Origin: Burkholderiales bacterium RIFCSPHIGHO2_12_FULL_61_11
GTDB lineage: Bacteria > Pseudomonadota > Gammaproteobacteria > Burkholderiales > Burkholderiaceae_C
Length of the DNA stretch: 13,052 nucleotides
Direction of reading: 5' to 3'
NCBI GenBank assembly: GCA_001770785.1
Contig: MERZ01000377.1
Span: 3,544-16,595, forward strand
Part shown: positions 2 through 7,237 of the stretch, one piece after another
How positions within the stretch are numbered: the stretch's first letter is position 1
Layout: each line of letters opens with the position of its first letter
The notes under the pieces: model-generated
What the model was told of the DNA's origin: nothing
Databases searched by the model: none
The model's input: only the letters and a program-made list of their open reading frames with translations
Position numbers and translations under genes: made by a program

Positions 2-1411
2 GGCGAGAGCATCAAGACCGTGATCCGCGAGAACGCCGGCGCCATGCAGCCGGGCAATGTCTATGTGCTGAATGACCCGTATCACGGCGGCACGCATTTG
101 CCCGACATTACTGTGATCACGCCGGTCTACCTGGGCAGCGCGGACACACCGACGTTTTATGTTGGCTCGCGCGGCCACCATGCCGACATCGGCGGCACCA
201 CGCCGGGCTCGATGCCGCCGTTTTCCACGCGCATCGAGGAGGAGGGCGTGCAGATCAACAACTTCCTGCTGGTGGATCGTGGTGTGTTGCGCGAAGCCGA
301 GATGATTGCGCTGCTGAAAAGCGGCCAGTACCCGAGCCGCAATCCGCAGCAGAACATGGCCGACTTGAAGGCGCAGATCGCCGCCAATGAAAAGGGCGTG
401 CAGGAGCTGCGCAAGATGGTCGAGCACTTCAGCCAGGGCGTGGTGCTGGCCTACATGGGCCATGTGCAGGACAACGCCGAAGAGTCGGTGCGCCGGGTGA
501 TTGCATTAATTGGGGTCAGATTCCAATTATCGGAGGCTAAGCGCCAGGCAACCATGAAGGAGACAAATAATTGGAATCTGACCCCAATTAATGCCTTTGC
601 CTTGCCGCTGGACAACGGCGCGCAGATCAAGGTCGCGGTTCGCGTGGACACGCAAAGCCGCAGCGCCGAGATCGACTTCGCCGGCACCTCGGCGCAGCAG
701 AGCAACAACTTCAATGCGCCAACGGCGGTGTGCATGGCGGTGGTGCTGTATGTGTTCCGCACGCTGGTGGACGACGACATTCCACTCAACGCCGGTTGCC
801 TGAAACCGCTCAAGGTCATCATTCCTGCCGGCTCGATGTTGAACCCGAACCCGCCTGCTTCGGTGGTAGCGGGGAACGTGGAAACGTCGAGCTGCATCAC
901 CAATGCGCTTTATGGTGCGCTGGGCGTGATGGCGGCCAGCCAGTGCACCATGAACAACTTCACCTTCGGTAACGAGCGTTACCAGTATTACGAAACCCTC
1001 TCGGGCGGATCGGGGGCGGGTGAAGGCTTCAATGGCACATCGGTCGTGCAAACCCACATGACCAACTCGCGCCTGACCGACCCCGAGGTGCTGGAGTTCC
1101 GCTTTCCGGTGCGGCTGGAGAGTTACGAAATTCGCCAGAACTCGGGCGGTGCCGGGCGCTGGGTCGGCGGCAACGGCGGCGTGCGGCGCGTGAAGTTTCT
1201 GGAGCCTATGACCGCCAGCATATTGTCCAACGGCCGCAAGCAGGGCGCTTTTGGCATGGCCGGCGGCGAGCCGGGGCAGGTGGGGCGCAACCTTGTCGTG
1301 CGGGCCAGTGGCCAGATCGAAGAACTCGATCACATCGGCCAGGCCGAGATGCAGCCGGGAGATGTATTCGAGATTCACACGCCGGGTGGTGGCGGTTTTG
1401 GAAAGCCCTGA
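2..1411 (+). CDS. 5-oxoprolinase / hydantoinase B family protein, 3' part (5' end outside window)
   Basis: This is the C-terminal (HyuB-like) half of an ATP-dependent 5-oxoprolinase, which opens 5-oxo-L-proline to glutamate, or a stand-alone hydantoinase B subunit; both are cytoplasmic. The frame is open from the first bases, so the gene begins upstream. Seen in the product: [14 protein letters not shown] near residue 24, then [55 protein letters not shown], and a glycine-rich end ([10 protein letters not shown]). The wording resembles the large OPLAH-type enzyme more than small HyuB proteins, so an N-terminal HyuA-like half may lie upstream. Oddity: residues about 168-198 are not family sequence but the translation of the palindromic element at 503-594. 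The frame stays open, so the protein may still be made, but activity with about 29 extra residues is unproven. It converges on the permease gene. Confidence 0.9.
503..594. mobile_element. 92-bp palindromic mini-element (RAYT/REP- or MITE-like) inside the oxoprolinase gene
   Basis: Two perfect 28-nt inverted arms, 503-530 and 567-594, enclose a 36-nt centre (531-566). The arms contain TTGGGGTCAGATTCCAATTA and its complement. From memory, arms with GGGGTCAGA cores flank REP-associated tyrosine transposase (RAYT, Y1_Tnp) genes in many proteobacteria, so this is probably a non-autonomous deletion derivative; no transposase is present. No target duplication is evident. The hosting frame reads through it, giving LIGVRFQL at the left and NWNLTPIN at the right; the opposite strand gives the same two peptides because of the symmetry. 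Compared with the remembered family pattern (VI-x-ALxDG-x-F-x-LPLDNGA), the element seems to replace a few native codons just before FALPLDNGA. Confidence 0.85.
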
Positions 1412-1419
1412 GTCTTTAT

Positions 1420-1483
1420 GATTTGCAAAAAAAAGGCGCATTTTAGAGGGCGCAAACAGCAGCTATTAGTTCTATAGCAAATC
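1420..1483. repeat. AT-rich intergenic repeat between convergent genes, with GCTA-N6-TAATAGCT copy A
   Basis: This gap between the convergent oxoprolinase and permease genes is bounded by GATTTGC (1420-1426) and GCAAATC (1477-1483), a 7-bp inverted pair that runs into the permease stop codon. Inside are an A8 run (1427-1434) and, on the minus strand, GCTATAGAACTAATAGCT (1478-1461). The latter shares its form with copies at 3674-3691 and 9447-9464. The spot is where a bidirectional terminator would be expected, but I see no GC-rich stem followed by a T-run, so I do not call one. Confidence 0.5.
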
Positions 1484-2558
1484 AGAAAAATGTCAGCGCA
1501 AGCCAGGCGAAGCCTGCGGCCATCGGCAAGGTTGCGACCCATGACAGCAGGACGTTGCGCAGCGCGCCCCAGTTGAGCGTATCGGCACCCGCGCCGACAC
1601 CGATGATGGCACCCACCGACACATGGGTGGTGGAGACCGGCAAACCGAATTGGCTGGCACCCAGCACGAGGGTGGCCGTGATCAGGTTGGCGGACAGCCC
1701 TTGCGTGGGATCCATGCGGGTGACGCGCCGGCTCATGGTTTCGGCCACGCGCCGCGCAAACAGCAGGCCACCGAGCGCCATCACGACCGCGATCAGCGCG
1801 ATCGACAACTGGGCCTGTAGCAGATGCGCCGCGACCAGAAGCGCGGCGAGTTTGGGCGTGTCGTTCACGGCGCGCGCAAAGCAGATCAGGCCAGCCGACA
1901 GGATATGCAGGTGGTCCTGCACGCGGGCAATGGAAAAGCGAGCGCGGGGCTGCGCCAGTCTGTCGCATGTTGCATCGTCGGCGATGAGCAGCTGTGGCGT
2001 AGCGAGACTCAACAGTGTGCCACCCGGCAACGCAAGGCCTGCTTGCGGCGGCAGCACGCAGGCGCAGTCCTTCGCGGTGGGCCGCAGGCGCAGCAAACGG
2101 TAGGCAACAAGCCCCAGCAATGCCGCCACCACGGGGCTGAACAGCAAGGGCAGCAAAAAGGAATTTCCCAGTTGCGTGAACTGTACTTCGTCGGGGCTGG
2201 CCGCCCATCCGGCACCGATGAGGCCGCCGATCAAGGCATGTGTGGTTGAAATTGGCAAGCCGACCCGGGTGGCGATGATCACCGTGAGGGCCGCGCCGAT
2301 GCCCACGCTCAGGATGAATTGCGGGGCGCTCACGATGGCCTGCGGCAGCAGGCCCTTGCCGGAAAATTGCTGCGCCAGGCCGCTGGCAAGAAACAGTGAC
2401 AGCAAGCTGCCCGCAAGCGTTGCGAGCGTGGCCAGCAGCAGCGCCTGACGGTAGCCGAGCGACTCTGATCCCCAGACGGTGGCAAAGCCCTTGAAATTGT
2501 CATTCGCGCCGTTGCCGAAAGCCAGAAACAGTGCGACGGCGATCAGCAGGTATTCCAT
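1482..2558 (-). CDS. pit: PiT-family inorganic phosphate (phosphate/arsenate-type anion) permease
   Basis: This is an integral inner-membrane carrier of the PiT family, which moves phosphate with a cation; arsenate is a known phosphate mimic for such carriers. The 358-residue protein shows the internal duplication typical of the family. The N-terminal half has GNGANDNFKG (15-24) and GLPISTTHA (100-108). The C-terminal half has the weaker VNDTPK (231-236) and GLPVSTTHV (305-313). Most of the chain is hydrophobic, with a polar linker around 160-210. It is shorter than E. coli PitA (about 500 residues), as are many PiT permeases. It starts 19 nt after the arsM stop and is the last gene of the arsenic operon, so uptake of phosphate/arsenate or export of an arsenic compound is a reasonable guess. 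Substrate and direction cannot be read from the sequence. The GTA/ATG region has no strong Shine-Dalgarno sequence. Confidence 0.9.
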   Translation of the reverse strand: MEYLLIAVALFLAFGNGANDNFKGFATVWGSESLGYRQALLLATLATLAGSLLSLFLASGLAQQFSGKGLLPQAIVSAPQFILSVGIGAALTVIIATRVGLPISTTHALIGGLIGAGWAASPDEVQFTQLGNSFLLPLLFSPVVAALLGLVAYRLLRLRPTAKDCACVLPPQAGLALPGGTLLSLATPQLLIADDATCDRLAQPRARFSIARVQDHLHILSAGLICFARAVNDTPKLAALLVAAHLLQAQLSIALIAVVMALGGLLFARRVAETMSRRVTRMDPTQGLSANLITATLVLGASQFGLPVSTTHVSVGAIIGVGAGADTLNWGALRNVLLSWVATLPMAAGFAWLALTFF

Positions 2559-2577
2559 GGAATTTTCCCGCTAAGAA

Positions 2578-3648
2578 TCAGCAGCAGGCGCCCGGCCCGC
2601 AGTCGCCGGGCGCGGCGCCTTGCGGCCCATCAAACGGCAAACTGCTGCCGCAGCCTTCAAAAATGCCGTAATGCGTGTCGAAGTTGCCGATGAAGCTGAA
2701 GTGCGGCGCAAAGCGCGTGCCGTGCAGCATGTGCCAGGTGTTGCCGCAGACCGGAAACACCTTGCCGGCCTGCATGTCGTGGTGCTTGTCGAGCACAAAA
2801 CGGCCCGGTTGCTCGGGAATGGTGCCGCGGTAGATCACGGCCTGGCCGAAGTCTTCGCAGGCCGATTCCAGCGCGGCCAGCTTGAACAGTCGATAGGTGG
2901 CCGAGAAAAAGCGCAGGTTGCCGGTGCGCGCGGCGAGTTGCGGGTCGGTGATGTCCAGCGGCCGGTCTTCCAGCAGGCGCGGATCGGCAAAGCCGTGGCG
3001 CTGGGCCAGGCGAATAAAGTCTTTCCAGTAGAGCGCGCCGCCCAGGCATTCGCCGTAAAGCACGGGGTCGTTGCGCACGGCCACGGGAACGCGGCGATCG
3101 GCGTACACGTCGGAAAAGTAAAACTCGCCGCCGGGCTTGAGCAGGCGCTGCACGCCGGCCAGCACGGCGTCCTTGTCGGGCGAGAGGTTGACGACACAGT
3201 TGGAGACGATCACGTCAAAGCTGGCGGGCTCCAGCCCCAGCTCATCGAGCCGCTCGATGTAGCCGTGCAGAAACTGCACATTGCTGTAGCCGAACACTTC
3301 GGCATGGTGGGCCTGGTGCGCTCTGGCCACGGCCAACTGCTCGTCGGTCATGTCAACGCCGACCACTTGCCCGCTGCGGCCAACAAGTTGCGCCAGCGCA
3401 TACACGTCGCGGCCCGAGCCGCAACCCAGATCGAGCACGCGGCAGCCTTCAAGCAGCGGCGGGCAGACCAGGCCGCAGCCGTAGTAGCGCGCCAGCACTT
3501 CGGGGTGGATGCGCGCAAGCAGCGGCTTGAGCCATTCGGGCATGGCGCTGGCGTCGCAGCAGGCGCTGGTCTTGAGATCAGCGCTGCCCTGCAACTGGTG
3601 GCCGTAGTAGTTCTGGACGAGGTTGTGGGTGGTGGTTTCGGTGTGCAT
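2578..3648 (-). CDS. arsM: Arsenite S-adenosylmethionine methyltransferase (ArsM)
   Basis: This cytoplasmic SAM-dependent enzyme methylates trivalent arsenic to mono- and dimethyl forms. Numbering from the chosen ATG at 3648 (356 aa), it shows a Cys pair C30-C31, YYGCGLVCP with C58 and C62, SAM motif I LDLGCGSGRD (72-81), VVGVDMT (95-101), SNCVVNLSPDK with C151, LKPGGEFYFSDVY (170-182) and GECLGGALYW with C201. C151 and C201 sit where the arsenic-binding cysteines of ArsM proteins are expected. The C-terminus is Cys/Gly-rich and ends CC, as in long bacterial ArsM proteins. The frame is open to an ATG at 3702, but GAAAGG lies 7 nt before the 3648 ATG, and the upstream codons overlap an AT-rich dispersed repeat, so 3648 is preferred. 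It is fifth in the operon and follows a repeat-bearing gap after the DUF2064 gene. Other small-molecule methyltransferases are less likely given the Cys pattern and the ArsS neighbour. Confidence 0.9.
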   Translation of the reverse strand: MHTETTTHNLVQNYYGHQLQGSADLKTSACCDASAMPEWLKPLLARIHPEVLARYYGCGLVCPPLLEGCRVLDLGCGSGRDVYALAQLVGRSGQVVGVDMTDEQLAVARAHQAHHAEVFGYSNVQFLHGYIERLDELGLEPASFDVIVSNCVVNLSPDKDAVLAGVQRLLKPGGEFYFSDVYADRRVPVAVRNDPVLYGECLGGALYWKDFIRLAQRHGFADPRLLEDRPLDITDPQLAARTGNLRFFSATYRLFKLAALESACEDFGQAVIYRGTIPEQPGRFVLDKHHDMQAGKVFPVCGNTWHMLHGTRFAPHFSFIGNFDTHYGIFEGCGSSLPFDGPQGAAPGDCGPGACC

Positions 3649-3660
3649 ATTGGAACCTTT
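3646..3660 (-). promoter_or_regulatory. arsM: Shine-Dalgarno and start codon of arsM
   Basis: On the minus strand GAAAGG is followed by 7 nt and then ATG at 3648-3646. This site decides the start against the upstream in-frame ATG at 3702, which has no comparable ribosome-binding sequence. Confidence 0.7.
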
Positions 3661-3673
3661 CAAAATCTTGAGT

Positions 3674-3691
3674 GCTACTGAATTAATAGCT
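3674..3691 (+). repeat. GCTA-N6-TAATAGCT dispersed motif, copy B
   Basis: GCTACTGAATTAATAGCT lies in the gap upstream of arsM and is followed by a T-run on the plus strand. It has the same GCTA, six-base spacer, TAATAGCT layout as the copies at 1461-1478 (minus) and 9447-9464 (plus). It looks like one of the small AT-rich repeats scattered through Comamonadaceae genomes (family assignment from memory). Confidence 0.5.
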
Positions 3692-3720
3692 ATTTTTTCC
3701 ATGTTTATTGGCCTTCTCAG

Positions 3721-3812
3721 GTAGGTCGGGTTAGCCGAAGGCGTAACCCGACATCCCCGGGGCGCGCAATCGCCGATGTCGGCTTACGCCCGCAAAGGCT
3801 AACCCGACCTAC
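3721..3812. repeat. Nested inverted repeat between the DUF2064 gene and arsM
   Basis: The outer arms are perfect: GTAGGTCGGGTTAGCC (3721-3736) and its complement (3797-3812). The inner arms GGCGTAACCCGACAT (3740-3754) and ATGTCGGCTTACGCC (3776-3790) pair with one mismatch. Each half is also a smaller hairpin (GTCGGGTTA against TAACCCGAC), so the 92 nt can fold as one long stem or two short ones. Sequences built on TAGGTCGGGTTA/TAACCCGACCTA are, as far as I recall, widespread REP-like repeats in beta- and gammaproteobacteria. The right arm overlaps the end of the DUF2064 gene and provides its stop codon (TAG, 3801-3799). In the operon transcript it could act as a stability or attenuation element before arsM. 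Confidence 0.8.
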
Positions 3813-4452
3813 GCGAGATGAGAAGTCCTGAGTCGTTTCGAAAATTGATGGGCAGCTGCGCCAGGTCGGCGGGCTCGTCGATGTCGTGCAGCGGCAAGCC
3901 TTGCCACACCCGCAGACTGAGCGCTGCCATGCGGCGCAGCGTCTCGGCGGCCACCGTGGACGTGCTCCAGCGCATCTGCGTGAAAACCTCGGGGCAGGGC
4001 GCTTTCAGACCGATCAGCACATAGCCGCCATCGGTGGCGGGAACCAGCACCGCGTCATGGGTTTGAAGCTGAGCGGCTGCCTCGGTGAGTCGCGCGGCCG
4101 TCAGCGCCGGGCAGTCGGTGCCGATGAGCAGCACGGGTTGCTGATGCTTGGTGGTGACGCGGTGCACGGCCCTGGCCATGCGCTGGCCCAGGTCGCCTTC
4201 GCCCTGGGCGGTGCGCAGTACGGCATCGGGCAGGTCGACGCCGCGCCAGGCCCGGTCTTGCGGCGCCGGAGTCATGCACAACTCGACCGGGCCAATCTGG
4301 GCGGCCAGCGCCTGCTGCAGCGCGTGGCTGAGCATGCTGCGCGCCAGCGCGGCCGCGCCCTGAGCGCCCAGCGCCGGGATCAGCCGGGTCTTGACCGCGC
4401 CTGCCTGTGGCGCCTTGGCAAAGAGCACGAGCCGGGGTCTGTTCAGGGTCAT
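3799..4452 (-). CDS. DUF2064 / TIGR04282-type (arsenosugar-associated) transferase
   Basis: This soluble protein belongs to the DUF2064 family, with a nucleotidyltransferase/GT-A-like fold, and to the subfamily first named rSAM/selenodomain-associated transferase 1, now linked to arsenosugar clusters. It shows FAKAPQAGAVKTRL (11-24, the phosphate-binding-type loop), GDLGQRM (86-92), IGTDCPAL (110-117, putative metal site), ATDGGYVLIGL (139-149) and DIDEPADL near the end. The start is uncertain. A GTG at 4467 overlaps the GT2 stop by 4 nt, and ATGs lie at 4458 and 4452. GAAGG sits 8 nt before 4452, which I prefer (217 aa). The last four residues and the stop come from the inverted repeat at 3797-3812, so the native C-terminus may have been altered. 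The likely role is activation or transfer of a sugar phosphate; the substrate is unproven. Confidence 0.85.
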   Translation of the reverse strand: MTLNRPRLVLFAKAPQAGAVKTRLIPALGAQGAAALARSMLSHALQQALAAQIGPVELCMTPAPQDRAWRGVDLPDAVLRTAQGEGDLGQRMARAVHRVTTKHQQPVLLIGTDCPALTAARLTEAAAQLQTHDAVLVPATDGGYVLIGLKAPCPEVFTQMRWSTSTVAAETLRRMAALSLRVWQGLPLHDIDEPADLAQLPINFRNDSGLLISRRSG

Positions 4453-4463
4453 GTGCATTGCCT

Positions 4464-5147
4464 TCACCGATAAAGTTCTGCCAGCCGCTCAGGGGCCGCG
4501 CCGCGCCAGTAGGCCAGGCGCAGCCGCCACATCAGCACCAGGGTAGACCACACGCCGCGGCTTTCCCAGCGCCGGCCCGAGGTGACGACGCACGCGCGCA
4601 GGCAGGCCGGGCGCGACAGCTTGAGCAAGCGCGCGGACAGCTCGATGTCTTCCATCAGCGGCTGGGCCGGAAAGCCGCCGACCGCGTCAAAGGCGGCGTG
4701 CGTCATGAACATGGCCTGGTCGCCGGTGGCGATGCCAGACCAGCGCGAGCGCACGTTCATGAACGCGGCAATCACGCGCAGGAGCCTTGGCTTGCCCGCA
4801 ATGCGCACGTCAAAACGGCCCCAGACTTCCGGGCCGGCAGCCAGCGCATGCTGAATCAGGATGTCGGCGTCGCCCGGCAGCGCGCTGTCGGCATGCAGAA
4901 ACAGCAGCACCGCGCCGCTGGCCTGCTGCGCCCCTGCGTTCATTTGCAGCGCCCGCCCGCGCGCTGCGCTGATGACCTGCGCGCCACCGGCCAGCGCGCG
5001 CGCGACGGTGTCATCGGCGCTGCCGCCATCGGCCACCAGCAGTTGCGCGCCGCGCGCCAGCAGCGGGGCCAGCGTCTGCAGGGCGGCATCGATGCCCGCC
5101 GCTTCGTTCAGCGCGGGCATGACGATGGTGAGCGTCGGTGCGGTCAT
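4464..5147 (-). CDS. GT2-family (TIGR04283-type, arsenosugar-associated) glycosyltransferase
   Basis: This 227-residue GT-A fold glycosyltransferase is of the subfamily known as rSAM/selenodomain-associated transferase 2, a standard partner of ArsS. Seen in the product: VMPALNEAAGI (9-19), the nucleotide-sugar motif DGGSADDT (40-47), RGRALQMNAGA (63-73, typical of this subgroup), the metal-binding HAD in place of DXD (85-87), GDQ (142-144) and the catalytic-type MEDIELSARL (165-174). No long membrane segment is evident. The ATG at 5147 lies only 3 nt after the arsS stop, and the gene's stop overlaps a possible GTG start of the DUF2064 gene, so translational coupling is likely. It is expected to join an arsenic-bearing ribosyl unit to an acceptor such as glycerol or a lipid headgroup. 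Donor and acceptor are inferred from context only. Confidence 0.88.
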   Translation of the reverse strand: MTAPTLTIVMPALNEAAGIDAALQTLAPLLARGAQLLVADGGSADDTVARALAGGAQVISAARGRALQMNAGAQQASGAVLLFLHADSALPGDADILIQHALAAGPEVWGRFDVRIAGKPRLLRVIAAFMNVRSRWSGIATGDQAMFMTHAAFDAVGGFPAQPLMEDIELSARLLKLSRPACLRACVVTSGRRWESRGVWSTLVLMWRLRLAYWRGAAPERLAELYR

Positions 5148-5150
5148 GGC

Positions 5151-6113
5151 TCAATGCTCCAGCGCGCCGCCGCAGCTGCTGCCCTGGCCGGCGGTGCAGC
5201 CAAAGCAGTGGCCGGCCACACGGATGGGTTGCTCGTCCAGGCCGGATTTGAGCAGATCGCGCAGGTGGCGGCGCAGGCCAGAGGTGCCGAGCGGCAGGCC
5301 GAGCTGCTGGTTGAAATCGCAATCAGACAGCCAGCCCTGCCAGTCCACGCTGACGGTGCTGCGGCACATCACGCCGGGCAGGTTTTGCGCCTGAAAACTG
5401 CTCTTGAGCAAGTCCATGTAGCTGTCAAAAGCGCCCTTGGACACCAGCGTCGAGCCAAAGCGCTGGATCGGCATGTTGGTCAGCGCAAACAGCTCGTTAA
5501 AGACGATGCCGAAATGCTGGGACAACTCGCGTTTGTAGTCGGCCTGCAGCTTTTTCTGCTCGGGCGGCAGCGACGCGCCTTGCGGGTTGTAGACCAGGTT
5601 CAGCACCAGGCCCGACTCTTCATGGCCGTAACCCAAGGCGTTAAGTTGCTGCAACGCGGCAATGCTCTTGTCAAACACGCCGTCGCCGCGCTGCCTGTCG
5701 ACGTTGACCGCCGAATAGCAGGGCATGGATGCAACCACCTCGACCCGCTGCGCGGCCAGAAACTCGGCCAGCCCTTGCTGCCCGGGCTCAGACAATATCG
5801 TGAGGTTGCAGCGGTCGATCACGCGCACGCCTTGCGCCCGCACCGCACGCACCAGATCCCGAAAACCCTGGTGCAACTCGGGCGCGCCGCCGGTCAGGTC
5901 CAGCGTGCCCAGCCCGCGCGCCGCCAGCACCTGCGGAATCAGCGCCAGCGTGGCATCGTCCATCATCTCGGTGCGGTTCGGCCCGGCATTGACATGGCAG
6001 TGCACGCAACTCTGGTTGCACTTGTAGCCCAGGTTGACTTGCAAGGTGTCCAGGCGCGCACGCCGGATCGCGGGGAAGCGGGTTTGCTCCAGCAGGGGCA
6101 GGGTGTCGTGCAT
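5151..6113 (-). CDS. arsS: Arsenosugar biosynthesis radical SAM protein ArsS
   Basis: This radical SAM enzyme of the TIGR04167/DUF3641 type has been linked to forming 5'-deoxy-5'-dimethylarsinoyl-adenosine from dimethylarsenic and SAM. The 320-residue protein has the [4Fe-4S]/SAM motif C32-x3-C36-x2-C39 in NLGYKCNQSCVHCHVNAGP, followed by LTGGAPELHQGFR (73-85). The C-terminal Cys-rich module HCFGCTAGQGSSCGG (302-316) has C303, C306 and C314. Some family members carry selenocysteine in this module; here the codons are ordinary Cys and no internal TGA is read. The length is normal for the family. The ATG at 6113 lies 22 nt after the phosphorylase stop, has no clear Shine-Dalgarno sequence, and is followed by a run typical of the family start. 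It is the best diagnostic marker for the operon's function. Confidence 0.93.
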   Translation of the reverse strand: MHDTLPLLEQTRFPAIRRARLDTLQVNLGYKCNQSCVHCHVNAGPNRTEMMDDATLALIPQVLAARGLGTLDLTGGAPELHQGFRDLVRAVRAQGVRVIDRCNLTILSEPGQQGLAEFLAAQRVEVVASMPCYSAVNVDRQRGDGVFDKSIAALQQLNALGYGHEESGLVLNLVYNPQGASLPPEQKKLQADYKRELSQHFGIVFNELFALTNMPIQRFGSTLVSKGAFDSYMDLLKSSFQAQNLPGVMCRSTVSVDWQGWLSDCDFNQQLGLPLGTSGLRRHLRDLLKSGLDEQPIRVAGHCFGCTAGQGSSCGGALEH

Positions 6114-6135
6114 GAGGATTTATTCGTTTTGAAAA

Positions 6136-7014
6136 TTAGTTGAGCAGCACGGCCAGCCGCGCGCGCACCTCGGGCGCCATGGCGTCGGGCTGGGTGACCA
6201 GCGCGTTTTTGAGCGCGCTGTGCGCCTCGCTCCCGGGTGGTTCGGCCCCCAGCAGGCGGATGGCCTCGGCCACCACTTGCTGCGCACGGCCCGCATTTTT
6301 CAGCAGATTGGCCAGCGCCATATTGGCGCTGACATTCGCCTCGCGCGGGTGCCAGCAGTCGTAGTCGGTCACCAGGGCCAGCGTGGTGTAGGCGATTTGC
6401 GCCTCGCGCGCCAGTTTGGCCTCTGGCATGTTGGTCATGCCGATCACGTCCGCGCCCATGCCGCGGTACCAGTTGGATTCGGCCAGGCTGGAAAACTGCG
6501 GGCCTTCGATGCAGACATAGGTGCCGCTTTCGTGCAGCGTCACGCCATGGTCTGGGGCATGTGCGGCGAGCACGCTGCGCACGGCGCGCGCCAGCACCGC
6601 GGCCGTCGCCGGGCACACCGGCTGCGCCATCGACACATGGGCCACGGCGCCCTGGCCGAAAAAGCTGCTCTCGCGGCGCTGGGTCAGGTCGATGAACTGG
6701 TCGGGCAGCGCCATGTCGAGCGGCTTGAAATCTTCTCGCAGCGAGCCCACGGCTGACACCGACAGCAGGTAACGCACGCCGAGCTGCTTCATGGCGTGGA
6801 GGTTGGCGCGGTAGGGCACTTCGCCGGGCAGCAGGCGGTGGCTACGGCCGTGCCTGGCCAGAAATGCCACCGGCACGCCGTGCACGCGGCCCGTCAGCAG
6901 CACGTCGGAGGGCGCGCCAAAAGGCGTGCTCATCAGCTGCTCCTGCGCGTCTTGCAGCGCATCCATCTGGTAGAGGCCGCTGCCTCCGATGATGCCGACC
7001 AGTGCCTGGGTCAT
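6136..7014 (-). CDS. mtnP: MTAP-type 6-aminopurine nucleoside phosphorylase
   Basis: This trimeric-type purine nucleoside phosphorylase/MTAP family enzyme cleaves 5'-modified adenosines with phosphate to adenine and a 5-modified ribose-1-phosphate. With the ATG at 7014 it has 292 residues, normal for the family. It shows GIIGGSGLY (7-15), the phosphate-site RHGRSH (54-59), GTYVCIEGPQFSS (164-176), GMTNMPEAKLARE (192-204) and TDYDCW (216-221). The two Asp residues of TDYDCW mark adenine-type substrates, unlike thioinosine phosphorylases, which lack them. The frame is open to 7077, but homology begins at MTQALVGIIGG, and AAGAAAG lies 8 nt before the 7014 ATG. It is the first gene of the minus-strand operon. 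Ordinary methylthioadenosine salvage is the default role; its position before arsS suggests action on the arsenic-adenosine product. The two roles are not exclusive. Confidence 0.9.
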   Translation of the reverse strand: MTQALVGIIGGSGLYQMDALQDAQEQLMSTPFGAPSDVLLTGRVHGVPVAFLARHGRSHRLLPGEVPYRANLHAMKQLGVRYLLSVSAVGSLREDFKPLDMALPDQFIDLTQRRESSFFGQGAVAHVSMAQPVCPATAAVLARAVRSVLAAHAPDHGVTLHESGTYVCIEGPQFSSLAESNWYRGMGADVIGMTNMPEAKLAREAQIAYTTLALVTDYDCWHPREANVSANMALANLLKNAGRAQQVVAEAIRLLGAEPPGSEAHSALKNALVTQPDAMAPEVRARLAVLLN

Positions 7015-7237
7015 GTTTGTGGCTTTCTTGTTAAAGTTAAATGGACAGAGTTCCCGAATATTGGCAGGTTCCGTCACCCGTTGAAACTTTAGGCGCTTTG
7101 GGCTGCATTGCGCCAGCTTTGCCGTTGACCAATTGGTCGCTGGCGCTGGCTATTTCTTACAGCGCGAAGCAAACTAGAGTTGTAAGAATCCCGGTCGCCA
7201 TCCGACTTATTCTGAAGAATAACCAACAAGGCTCTTA
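7015..7237. promoter_or_regulatory. Divergent promoter/operator region between the arsenic operon and the TVP38-flavoprotein gene
   Basis: This 223-nt gap between divergent starts holds three dyads: a perfect 12-bp palindrome GACCAATTGGTC (7127-7138) that overlaps a possible -35 TTGACC (7125-7130); an 8-bp pair TTCTTACA (7154-7161) and TGTAAGAA (7181-7188) spaced by 19 nt; and TTATTCTGAAGAATAA (7207-7222), a 6-4-6 dyad just upstream of the start. No convincing full sigma-70 promoter is seen in either direction. The short frame that crosses this gap on the plus strand has no coding look. Which regulator binds is unknown, and no arsR-like gene is in the window. Confidence 0.45.

What the first reader, a model, noticed from the sequence alone, without database searches (positions are those of the whole stretch)
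1482..7014. Compact arsenosugar-type organoarsenical biosynthesis operon in a betaproteobacterium
Phosphorylase, ArsS, GT2 (TIGR04283 type), DUF2064 (TIGR04282 type), ArsM and PiT lie on one strand in series, most with tiny gaps or overlaps. ArsM and ArsS are the two experimentally linked early enzymes of arsenosugar formation in cyanobacteria. Here nearly all steps expected from arsenite to a coupled arsenosugar are in one transcription unit. The operon lacks the usual resistance genes (arsR, arsC, acr3), which points to synthesis rather than simple detoxification.
Basis: partly seen in the sequence, partly recalled or inferred. Interest (0 to 1): 0.75.

Follow-up and report, generated by a model that had tools for sequence, protein, structure and literature searches.

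The report
Arsenosugar-making operon with its own importer
A bacterium related to Polaromonas carries one row of genes that looks able to take up arsenic, methylate it, attach it to a ribose and couple that sugar to something else, and comparison of genomes points to candidate enzymes for the steps after the two known ones.

Summary
Six genes lie in series on the minus strand: MTAP-type phosphorylase, ArsS, GT2 (TIGR04283), DUF2064 (TIGR04282), ArsM, PiT. Five pass a specific curated cut-off; ArsM passes none of the ArsM models but keeps four arsenic-methyltransferase cysteines. That ArsS/ArsM clusters make arsenosugars is prior knowledge. New here: (1) The phosphorylase belongs to a clade apart from methionine-salvage MTAPs. 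The ArsS-type clades occur in 13 of 16 ArsS+ and 1 of 134 ArsS- Burkholderiaceae, and no mtnA was found in the host. It is the best candidate for removing adenine from the arsenic nucleoside. (2) DUF2064, named a glycosyltransferase in NCBIfam, has a nucleotidyltransferase fold and motifs. Phosphorylase, nucleotidyltransferase and GT2 would form a classical sugar-activation route. (3) In relatives the operon carries phosphate-type importers of three unrelated families (PiT, PstSCAB, PhnDE); close relatives of them are in 8 of 16 ArsS+ and 0 of 134 ArsS- genomes. I read them as arsenate uptake, or else phosphate supply under arsenic. (4) The system extends to the divergent VTT-FAD and DUF3047 genes. 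No chemistry is shown; product, aglycone and transported ion are inferred.

The parts
6136..7014 (-). ArsS-associated MTAP-type phosphorylase (candidate arsenonucleoside phosphorylase); a longer start at 7077 is possible
   Evidence: TIGR01694 301.0 bits, cut-off 274.85; nearest solved structure 4glf RsfP, E 6.4e-112; in clade ArsS_main, support 97/96
5151..6113 (-). ArsS radical SAM enzyme, CxxxCxxC at C32/C36/C39
   Evidence: TIGR04167 454.3 bits, cut-off 300; these cysteines plus C132, C250, C265, C303, C306, C314 kept in 122 of 122 aligned copies, duplicates included
4464..5147 (-). GT2 glycosyltransferase, TIGR04283
   Evidence: 258.8 bits, cut-off 182; model pLDDT 95.9, nearest folds PcManGT, WrtF fucosyltransferase, and further down glucosyl-3-phosphoglycerate synthase
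3799..4452 (-). DUF2064/TIGR04282, nucleotidyltransferase-fold protein (start 4467 GTG also possible)
   Evidence: 215.6 bits, cut-off 134; model pLDDT 94.7; nearest folds 3cgx, MM2497 2i5e, Rv2983 6bwh, 3-phosphoglycerate guanylyltransferase 7p97; motif residues at 95% or more of 76
3715..3818 (.). inverted repeat (22-base arms, 91% complementary, 60 between) between DUF2064 and arsM; overlaps the DUF2064 stop
2578..3648 (-). ArsM arsenite methyltransferase (start 3702 also possible)
   Evidence: 5evj E 5.9e-103, 4fr0 E 1.7e-89; four cysteines 37 of 37; below NCBIfam cut-offs
1482..2558 (-). PiT-type transporter of the ArsS-operon kind, with CAC (165-167) and C198
   Evidence: PF01384 223.5 bits; full-length matches in 2 of 150 Burkholderiaceae, both in ArsS operons; another PiT of the host on C340
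7238..9400 (+). TVP38/VTT membrane domain fused to an FAD disulphide-reductase-type domain, divergent; belongs to the system
   Evidence: PF09335, PF07992, PF02852; inside the ArsS operon in L037, L041, L143, L156
9336..10205 (+). DUF3047 protein, probably also part of the system (this longest ORF overlaps the gene before it; the true start is likely further in)
   Evidence: PF11249 198 bits; in the ArsS operon of L037, L041, L143, L156

Best explanation
It is an arsenosugar operon. Route: PiT brings in arsenate (inferred). It is reduced by enzymes not in the operon; the FAD reductase next door may supply electrons (weak inference). ArsM methylates As(III) to dimethylarsenic (family function). 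ArsS adds a 5'-deoxyadenosyl group, giving 5'-deoxy-5'-dimethylarsinoyl-adenosine (family function, shown by others for ArsS). The ArsS-type phosphorylase cleaves off adenine with phosphate, leaving 5-deoxy-5-dimethylarsinoyl-ribose-1-phosphate (inferred). DUF2064 joins this to a nucleotide, or instead activates a three-carbon phosphate acceptor (inferred from fold). GT2 transfers the arsenoribose to an acceptor, perhaps a glycerol- or 3-phosphoglycerate-type molecule (weakly inferred). The locus looks like two modules, phosphorylase-ArsS-GT2-DUF2064 and ArsM-importer; ArsM-PstSCAB stands apart from ArsS in two relatives.
For: Families and order. ArsS cysteines 122 of 122, ArsM cysteines 37 of 37. 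In 150 Burkholderiaceae genomes ArsS is over the cut-off in 16; MTAP at E 1e-40 is in 15 of 16 ArsS+ and 7 of 134 ArsS- (Fisher 1.6e-14); the ArsS-type clades in 13 of 16 and 1 of 134 (Fisher 4.2e-15). The nine mtnA-clade MTAPs each lie within 1 kb of mtnA; none of the 14 ArsS-type ones is near mtnA, and no mtnA was found in the host. The ArsS main clade reaches G226 (f12), G269 (f24) and Marinobacterium. Positions matched to human V233 and V236 are Ala in 38 and 41 of 41 main-clade rows, Val in 8 of 9 and Ile/Val in 9 of 9 mtnA-clade rows (PMC5738077 passages). G011 has GT2, DUF2064, PhnD, PhnE, an ABC ATPase, a phosphatase-like gene and MTAP in one row, with ArsS elsewhere. DUF2064 fold. Importers: in 17 of 120 ArsS loci plus the window (L038 and L144 are one genome); 8 of 16 ArsS+ and 0 of 134 ArsS- genomes (Fisher 2.4e-9).
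Against: No biochemistry. 17 of the 80 loci have neither GT2 nor DUF2064 in the stretch held, L005, L028 and L029 among them, so these may lie elsewhere or be dispensable. No MTAP was found in G036, and only the mtnA-linked type in G123 and G133. Across the phylum the MTAP link is weaker: 91 of 117 ArsS+ (E 1e-60) against 130 of 281 others (E 1e-50). The second ArsS-linked MTAP clade keeps bulky residues at the two pocket positions. Half of the ArsS+ Burkholderiaceae show none of the three importers by these searches. Pst and Phn operons beside arsenic genes are already known in arsenite-oxidase islands (PMC3834237 passages).
Confidence: 0.6

Rival explanations
1. The phosphorylase is an ordinary MTA or 5'-deoxyadenosine disposal enzyme that protects SAM and radical SAM enzymes; it is near ArsS only for general nucleoside clean-up.
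For: It passes the TIGR01694 cut-off; MTAPs act on several 5'-modified adenosines (recalled); two ArsS+ genomes show only the mtnA-linked type and one none.
Against: Radical SAM-like matches are found in nearly all these genomes (142 of 150 give at least a weak hit to the ArsS model), yet MTAP is in only 22 of 150 and follows ArsS (15 of 16 against 7 of 134). The ArsS-type clades are separate from the mtnA-linked clade and no mtnA was found in the host.
Confidence: 0.25
2. The PiT, Pst and Phn transporters supply phosphate, which arsenate displaces and which the phosphorylase consumes; they do not import arsenic on purpose.
For: Pst and Phn operons sit in arsenite-oxidase islands; the paper mentions both PstS discrimination against arsenate and possible arsenate transport (PMC3834237 passages).
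Against: The operon PiT is unlike the other PiT of the host, and the operon types are tied to ArsS genomes; ArsM pairs with PstSCAB in G042 and G081, where no phosphorylase hit lies in the unit.
Confidence: 0.35
3. The operon makes another organoarsenical (for example an arsenolipid or free arsenoribose) rather than the known glycerol-type arsenosugars.
For: The acceptor of GT2 cannot be read from sequence; GT2 and DUF2064 are missing beside ArsS in some relatives.
Against: The GT2 model resembles glucosyl-3-phosphoglycerate synthase among others, and some related operons hold a phosphatase-like gene, both fitting a phosphorylated three-carbon acceptor.
Confidence: 0.3

Closest known systems
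Cyanobacterial ArsM/ArsS arsenosugar pathway (Synechocystis; ArsS studied by Xue et al. 2019 and Cheng et al. 2021, both seen only as cited in PMC8552651 and PMC12159101)
   Same: Same two early enzymes, ArsM and ArsS
   Different: In the four cyanobacterial loci fetched (L045, L057, L060, L061; 6.5-14.6 kb) ArsM follows ArsS, but no GT2, DUF2064, MTAP, PiT, PstS or PhnD hit lies in the stretch held (one PstB-like ATPase hit in L060)
NCBIfam arsenosugar families TIGR04167, TIGR04282, TIGR04283
   Same: Window proteins pass all three cut-offs; NCBI already names them arsenosugar biosynthesis
   Different: TIGR04282 is named a glycosyltransferase there; fold and motifs here say nucleotidyltransferase. 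One paper calls the gene fbiD (PMC8801600 passage)
Arsinothricin cluster arsQML of Burkholderia gladioli (PMC8552651, abstract start and passages)
   Same: ArsM with a radical SAM enzyme acting on arsenic
   Different: The radical SAM enzyme is ArsL and the genes lie in an arsenic resistance operon; the passages seen mention no phosphorylase, GT2 or DUF2064
Arsenite-oxidase gene islands with pst and phn operons (PMC3834237, passages)
   Same: Pst and Phn transporter operons beside arsenic genes
   Different: Linked to aioBA and ars genes; a text search of the paper gave 0 hits for arsM and PiT
RsfP (PDB 4glf; Antarctic soil metagenome; PMC3561333, passages)
   Same: Nearest solved structure of the phosphorylase; the same Ala pair at the two pocket positions in the alignment
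   Different: Described as a putative MTAP that binds rhodamine B; its enzymatic activity was left for later work

Membership tests
ArsS, arsenosugar radical SAM (TIGR04167) | Curated score over 300 bits, with CxxxCxxC and the C-terminal DUF3641 domain | tested here: met
   454.3 bits; PF12345 183.9 bits; cysteines 122 of 122
ArsS, arsenosugar radical SAM (TIGR04167) | Forms the adenosyl-arsenic bond | not testable with these tools
   Needs an enzyme assay; known for the family only from papers as cited
ArsM arsenite methyltransferase | Conserved arsenic-binding cysteines | tested here: met
   Four cysteines in 37 of 37, aligned with cysteines of 4fr0; that these are the catalytic ones is recalled
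ArsM arsenite methyltransferase | NCBIfam curated cut-off of an ArsM model | tested here: not met
   NF008823 172.4 of 263; NF040538 133.6 of 500; NF038099 87.7 of 400. The function is argued from solved homologues
TIGR04282 / TIGR04283 | Curated cut-offs | tested here: met
   215.6 over 134 and 258.8 over 182
Nucleotidyltransferase superfamily (CofC/FbiD-like) | Fold and the K.RL, GxDxP, DGG and DxD motif positions | tested here: met
   that these are NTP and metal sites is recalled
CofC (TIGR03552) | Curated cut-off 105 bits | tested here: not met
   55.8 bits: may work like it, not a member
MTAP (TIGR01694) | Curated cut-off 274.85 bits | tested here: met
   301.0 bits
Methionine-salvage MTAP | Clade with, and linkage to, mtnA | tested here: not met
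   Other clade; no mtnA at E 1e-30 in the host, 94% complete
PiT phosphate transporter (PF01384) | Pfam cut-off 33.7 bits | tested here: met
   223.5 bits; substrate not testable
Ars resistance operon | arsR, arsC, arsB or acr3 in the row | tested here: not met
   None among the families shown for ten window proteins; no Acr3 in the genome; ArsB, ArsC, ArsR not sought elsewhere in the genome

The most novel reading that the evidence does not exclude
The ArsS-type phosphorylase is a dedicated arsenonucleoside phosphorylase; with DUF2064 as nucleotidyltransferase and GT2 as transferase it completes a route through a nucleotide-activated arsenoribose. The cell feeds the route through dedicated arsenate importers recruited from three unrelated phosphate-type transporter families, so that arsenic is taken up on purpose as a building material.
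Probability: 0.3. Interest if true: 0.85.

Novelty: new variant of a known kind. Interest (0 to 1): 0.62.

Why it matters
Arsenosugars are among the main arsenic compounds of algae, yet in the papers seen here only ArsM and ArsS are tied to their making; the loss of adenine has been drawn as an unnamed nucleosidase step (PMC10456119 passage). This locus and its relatives name candidate genes for deadenylation, activation, coupling and uptake, and named Polaromonas strains carry it. A crystal structure of a close relative of the phosphorylase (4glf) exists for testing substrate fit. If the importers carry arsenate, the usual view that bacteria only keep arsenic out or pump it out would need an exception.

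Tried and rejected
Considered and rejected: (a) that PiT is the only, housekeeping phosphate transporter: a different PiT lies on C340, and the operon type has full-length matches in 2 of 150 genomes. (b) That the phosphorylase is the methionine-salvage gene of the host: no mtnA found, other clade. (c) That DUF2064 is a glycosyltransferase: the nearest folds are nucleotidyltransferases. (d) That a change in the 5' pocket marks all ArsS-linked phosphorylases: it marks the main clade only. (e) A simple gene caller picked long antisense ORFs; the replacements are still rough, so counts rest on profile hits. (f) Rfam: no match at gathering scores. (g) Papers: no paper held arsenosugar, phosphorylase, glycosyltransferase and gene cluster together, nor arsenosugar, biosynthesis, ArsS and ArsM; arsenosugar with radical SAM gave two. 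The library is open-licence only, so this is no proof of absence from print; Xue et al. 2019 is not held.

Limits of the controls: the PiT, PstS and PhnD profiles were built from the operon copies, so other types could be missed there; Fisher values ignore relatedness (the 16 ArsS+ genomes bear 16 different genus labels); of the 398-genome phylum sample I fetched neighbourhoods of 25 ArsS+ genomes outside the family only, chosen by hand. 'ArsS-type' includes the second clade because L139 and L151 show it in ArsS operons and L193 beside GT2 and DUF2064; its member in G059 has no core gene in the 18 kb fetched. Rows dropped: duplicates, L093 and L106 in the pocket count (L093 also has the Ala pair); duplicates and L106 in the tree, with its genome G140 counted as not ArsS-type; fragments of L016 and L034 under 200 residues.
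Full report
What is there. The window lies at G000:C377:3544-16595 of a 3.77 Mb draft genome in 416 contigs. Its nearest ArsS relatives in named genomes are from Polaromonas, Rhodoferax and other Comamonadaceae, up to 92% identical. On the minus strand the phosphorylase, ArsS, GT2, DUF2064, ArsM and PiT genes follow each other. The one seam is the 96 to 150 bases between DUF2064 and ArsM, where an inverted repeat lies. In G042 and G081 ArsM stands before PstSCAB away from ArsS, so the operon looks like two joined modules.

Is it more than chance. ArsS was used to fetch 80 loci from named genomes (93 found, the best 80 kept). Within 8 kb of ArsS, 61 of 80 have GT2, 55 DUF2064, 41 the FAD oxidoreductase (38 of full VTT-FAD type), 33 MTAP, 31 ArsM, 23 DUF3047. 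In 40 further loci, chosen by me from ArsS+ genomes, the numbers are 20, 21, 20 (17 of full type), 11, 6 and 13. The VTT-FAD and DUF3047 genes, divergent in the window, lie on the ArsS strand inside its operon in L037, L041, L143 and L156. Against: 17 of the 80 have neither GT2 nor DUF2064 in the stretch held. Ten of the 40 (L163, L168-L176) carry a lower-scoring ArsS (338-369 bits in my profile) without GT2 or DUF2064, and L166, L167, L177 and L178 (508-554 bits) also show no partner; TIGR04167 may hold more than one function, or the genes may be scattered.

The phosphorylase. In 150 Burkholderiaceae genomes ArsS passes its cut-off in 16. MTAP at E 1e-40 is in 22: 15 of the 16 ArsS+ and 7 of the 134 ArsS- (Fisher 1.6e-14). 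A tree of 55 rows gives three groups: ArsS main clade (97/96), a second ArsS-linked clade (100/100), and a group with mtnA neighbours (95/82, with one long-branch member, L107, whose place is unsure) (midpoint root only). The nine MTAPs of the last group each lie within 1 kb of mtnA. Counted by clade, the ArsS types are in 13 of 16 and 1 of 134. The exception, G064, has its phosphorylase beside a TIGR04283 GT2 (270.4 bits), a DUF547 gene, a rhodanese and another radical SAM protein distantly like TrsS (104.9 of 490 bits), so it may be a sister system. No mtnA was found in the host genome (94% complete). At the two positions matched to human V233 and V236 the main clade has Ala (38 and 41 of 41), the mtnA group Val (8 of 9) and Ile/Val (9 of 9). 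A paper on MTAPs says V233 and V236 make hydrophobic contacts to the methylthioribose (PMC5738077 passages). A roomier pocket would suit the dimethylarsinoyl group; this is inference, and the second ArsS-linked clade does not share it (Val 4 of 4, Ile/Val 4 of 4). Across the phylum the link is weaker, 91 of 117 ArsS+ against 130 of 281 others, since many Pseudomonadota have MTAP anyway.

DUF2064 and GT2. DUF2064 is named an arsenosugar glycosyltransferase in NCBIfam. Its model (pLDDT 94.7) matches first 3cgx, MM2497 (2i5e, a probable nucleotidyltransferase; CofC by recall), Rv2983 (FbiD by recall) and 3-phospho-D-glycerate guanylyltransferase 7p97. Residues K14, R16, L17, G104, D106, P108, D134, G135, G136, D183 and D185 (domain numbering) are at 95% or more in 76 aligned copies. 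GT2 (pLDDT 95.9) matches GT2-type enzymes: the mannosyltransferase PcManGT, the GDP-fucose enzyme WrtF and, from rank 18, the UDP-glucose enzyme glucosyl-3-phosphoglycerate synthase. Phosphorylase, nucleotidyltransferase and transferase make a complete route from sugar-1-phosphate to glycoside. The nearest nucleotidyltransferases act on three-carbon phosphates, so DUF2064 could instead activate the acceptor.

The importers. After ArsM, DUF2064 or ArsS, relatives carry PiT (L007, L016, L017, L042, L043, L146; before ArsM in L072), PstSCAB or its start (L005, L020, L026, L037, L156), or PhnD with PhnE (L004, L035, L038, L144, L145; L038 and L144 share contig length and hits and are taken as one genome). 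In 1.92 Mb of 156 ArsS records, duplicates included, every PiT, PstS or PhnD hit was on the ArsS strand and within 7 kb of it; the profiles were built from these copies, so other types could be missed. In the 150 genomes the window-type PiT is full length in 2, L004-type PhnD at 70% identity or more in 5, L005-type PstS at 59% or more in 2. Together that is 8 of 16 ArsS+ and 0 of 134 ArsS- (Fisher 2.4e-9); the identity limits were set after seeing the hits. Weaker matches in ArsS- genomes: G101 (41%), G139 (38%, partial), G005, G044, G052 (33-44%). In G006 and G042 the PhnD, and in G042 and G081 the PstS, are not at the ArsS locus. The operon PiT has a CAC motif and C198, kept in 4 of 4 copies aligned; the other PiT of the host lacks them. 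Whether the load is arsenate or phosphate is open: Pst and Phn operons are known in arsenite-oxidase islands (PMC3834237 passages).

What is known and what is not. ArsS and ArsM as the first arsenosugar steps are known (PMC8552651 and PMC12159101 passages). Removal of adenine has been drawn as a nucleosidase step, no gene being named in the passage seen (PMC10456119). In the ten searches made I saw no paper giving a gene for it; the library is open-licence only. Hence: known kind of cluster, new variant and new candidate parts.

Noticed in passing
window 503-594: A perfect inverted repeat (28-base arms, 36 between) sits inside the Hydantoinase_B ORF 20-1411 (PF02538, 529 bits) and keeps its frame open; looks like an inserted mobile repeat.
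   Followed up: partly
L199 4262-9782 (G064): Locus of a genome without ArsS over the cut-off, with ArsS-type phosphorylase, TIGR04283 GT2, DUF547, rhodanese and a different radical SAM protein distantly like TrsS: possibly a sister pathway with another bond former.
   Followed up: partly
L035, L067, L141, L145, L151, L159 and others; e.g. L067:4522-5565: A family near ArsS with metallophosphatase-like motifs by eye (Pfam Metallophos E 0.0067, below cut-off, for the L067 copy; no match for the L151 copy); found within 8 kb of ArsS in 12 of 80 and 4 of 40 loci. Could be a phosphatase finishing the arsenosugar.
   Followed up: partly
window 1482-2558: Cysteines CAC (165-167) and C198 in the operon PiT, absent from the other PiT of the host; possible As(III) sensing.
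   Followed up: partly
L028 7416-8018, L029 9000-9638: In two relatives a glutathione peroxidase gene follows ArsS where GT2 and DUF2064 would be.
   Followed up: no
L016 (CP087965.1): PiT, phosphorylase, GT2, VTT-FAD and the SelD-N-like gene all appear split into frames there, which suggests sequencing error or decay of the region; described only.
   Followed up: no
L163, L168-L176: TIGR04167 members with lower scores and no GT2 or DUF2064 beside them; the family may hold a second function.
   Followed up: no
L014 2796-3950; also L041, L143, L151: A TIGR03169 (N-terminal-to-SelD type) FAD oxidoreductase (329.9 bits, cut-off 310) recurs near the cluster, in 23 of 80 loci.
   Followed up: partly
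L053 6574-7413 and 16 other loci, mostly named as Hyphomicrobiales or other Alphaproteobacteria: A DUF3750 gene lies near ArsS in 17 of the 80 loci.
   Followed up: no
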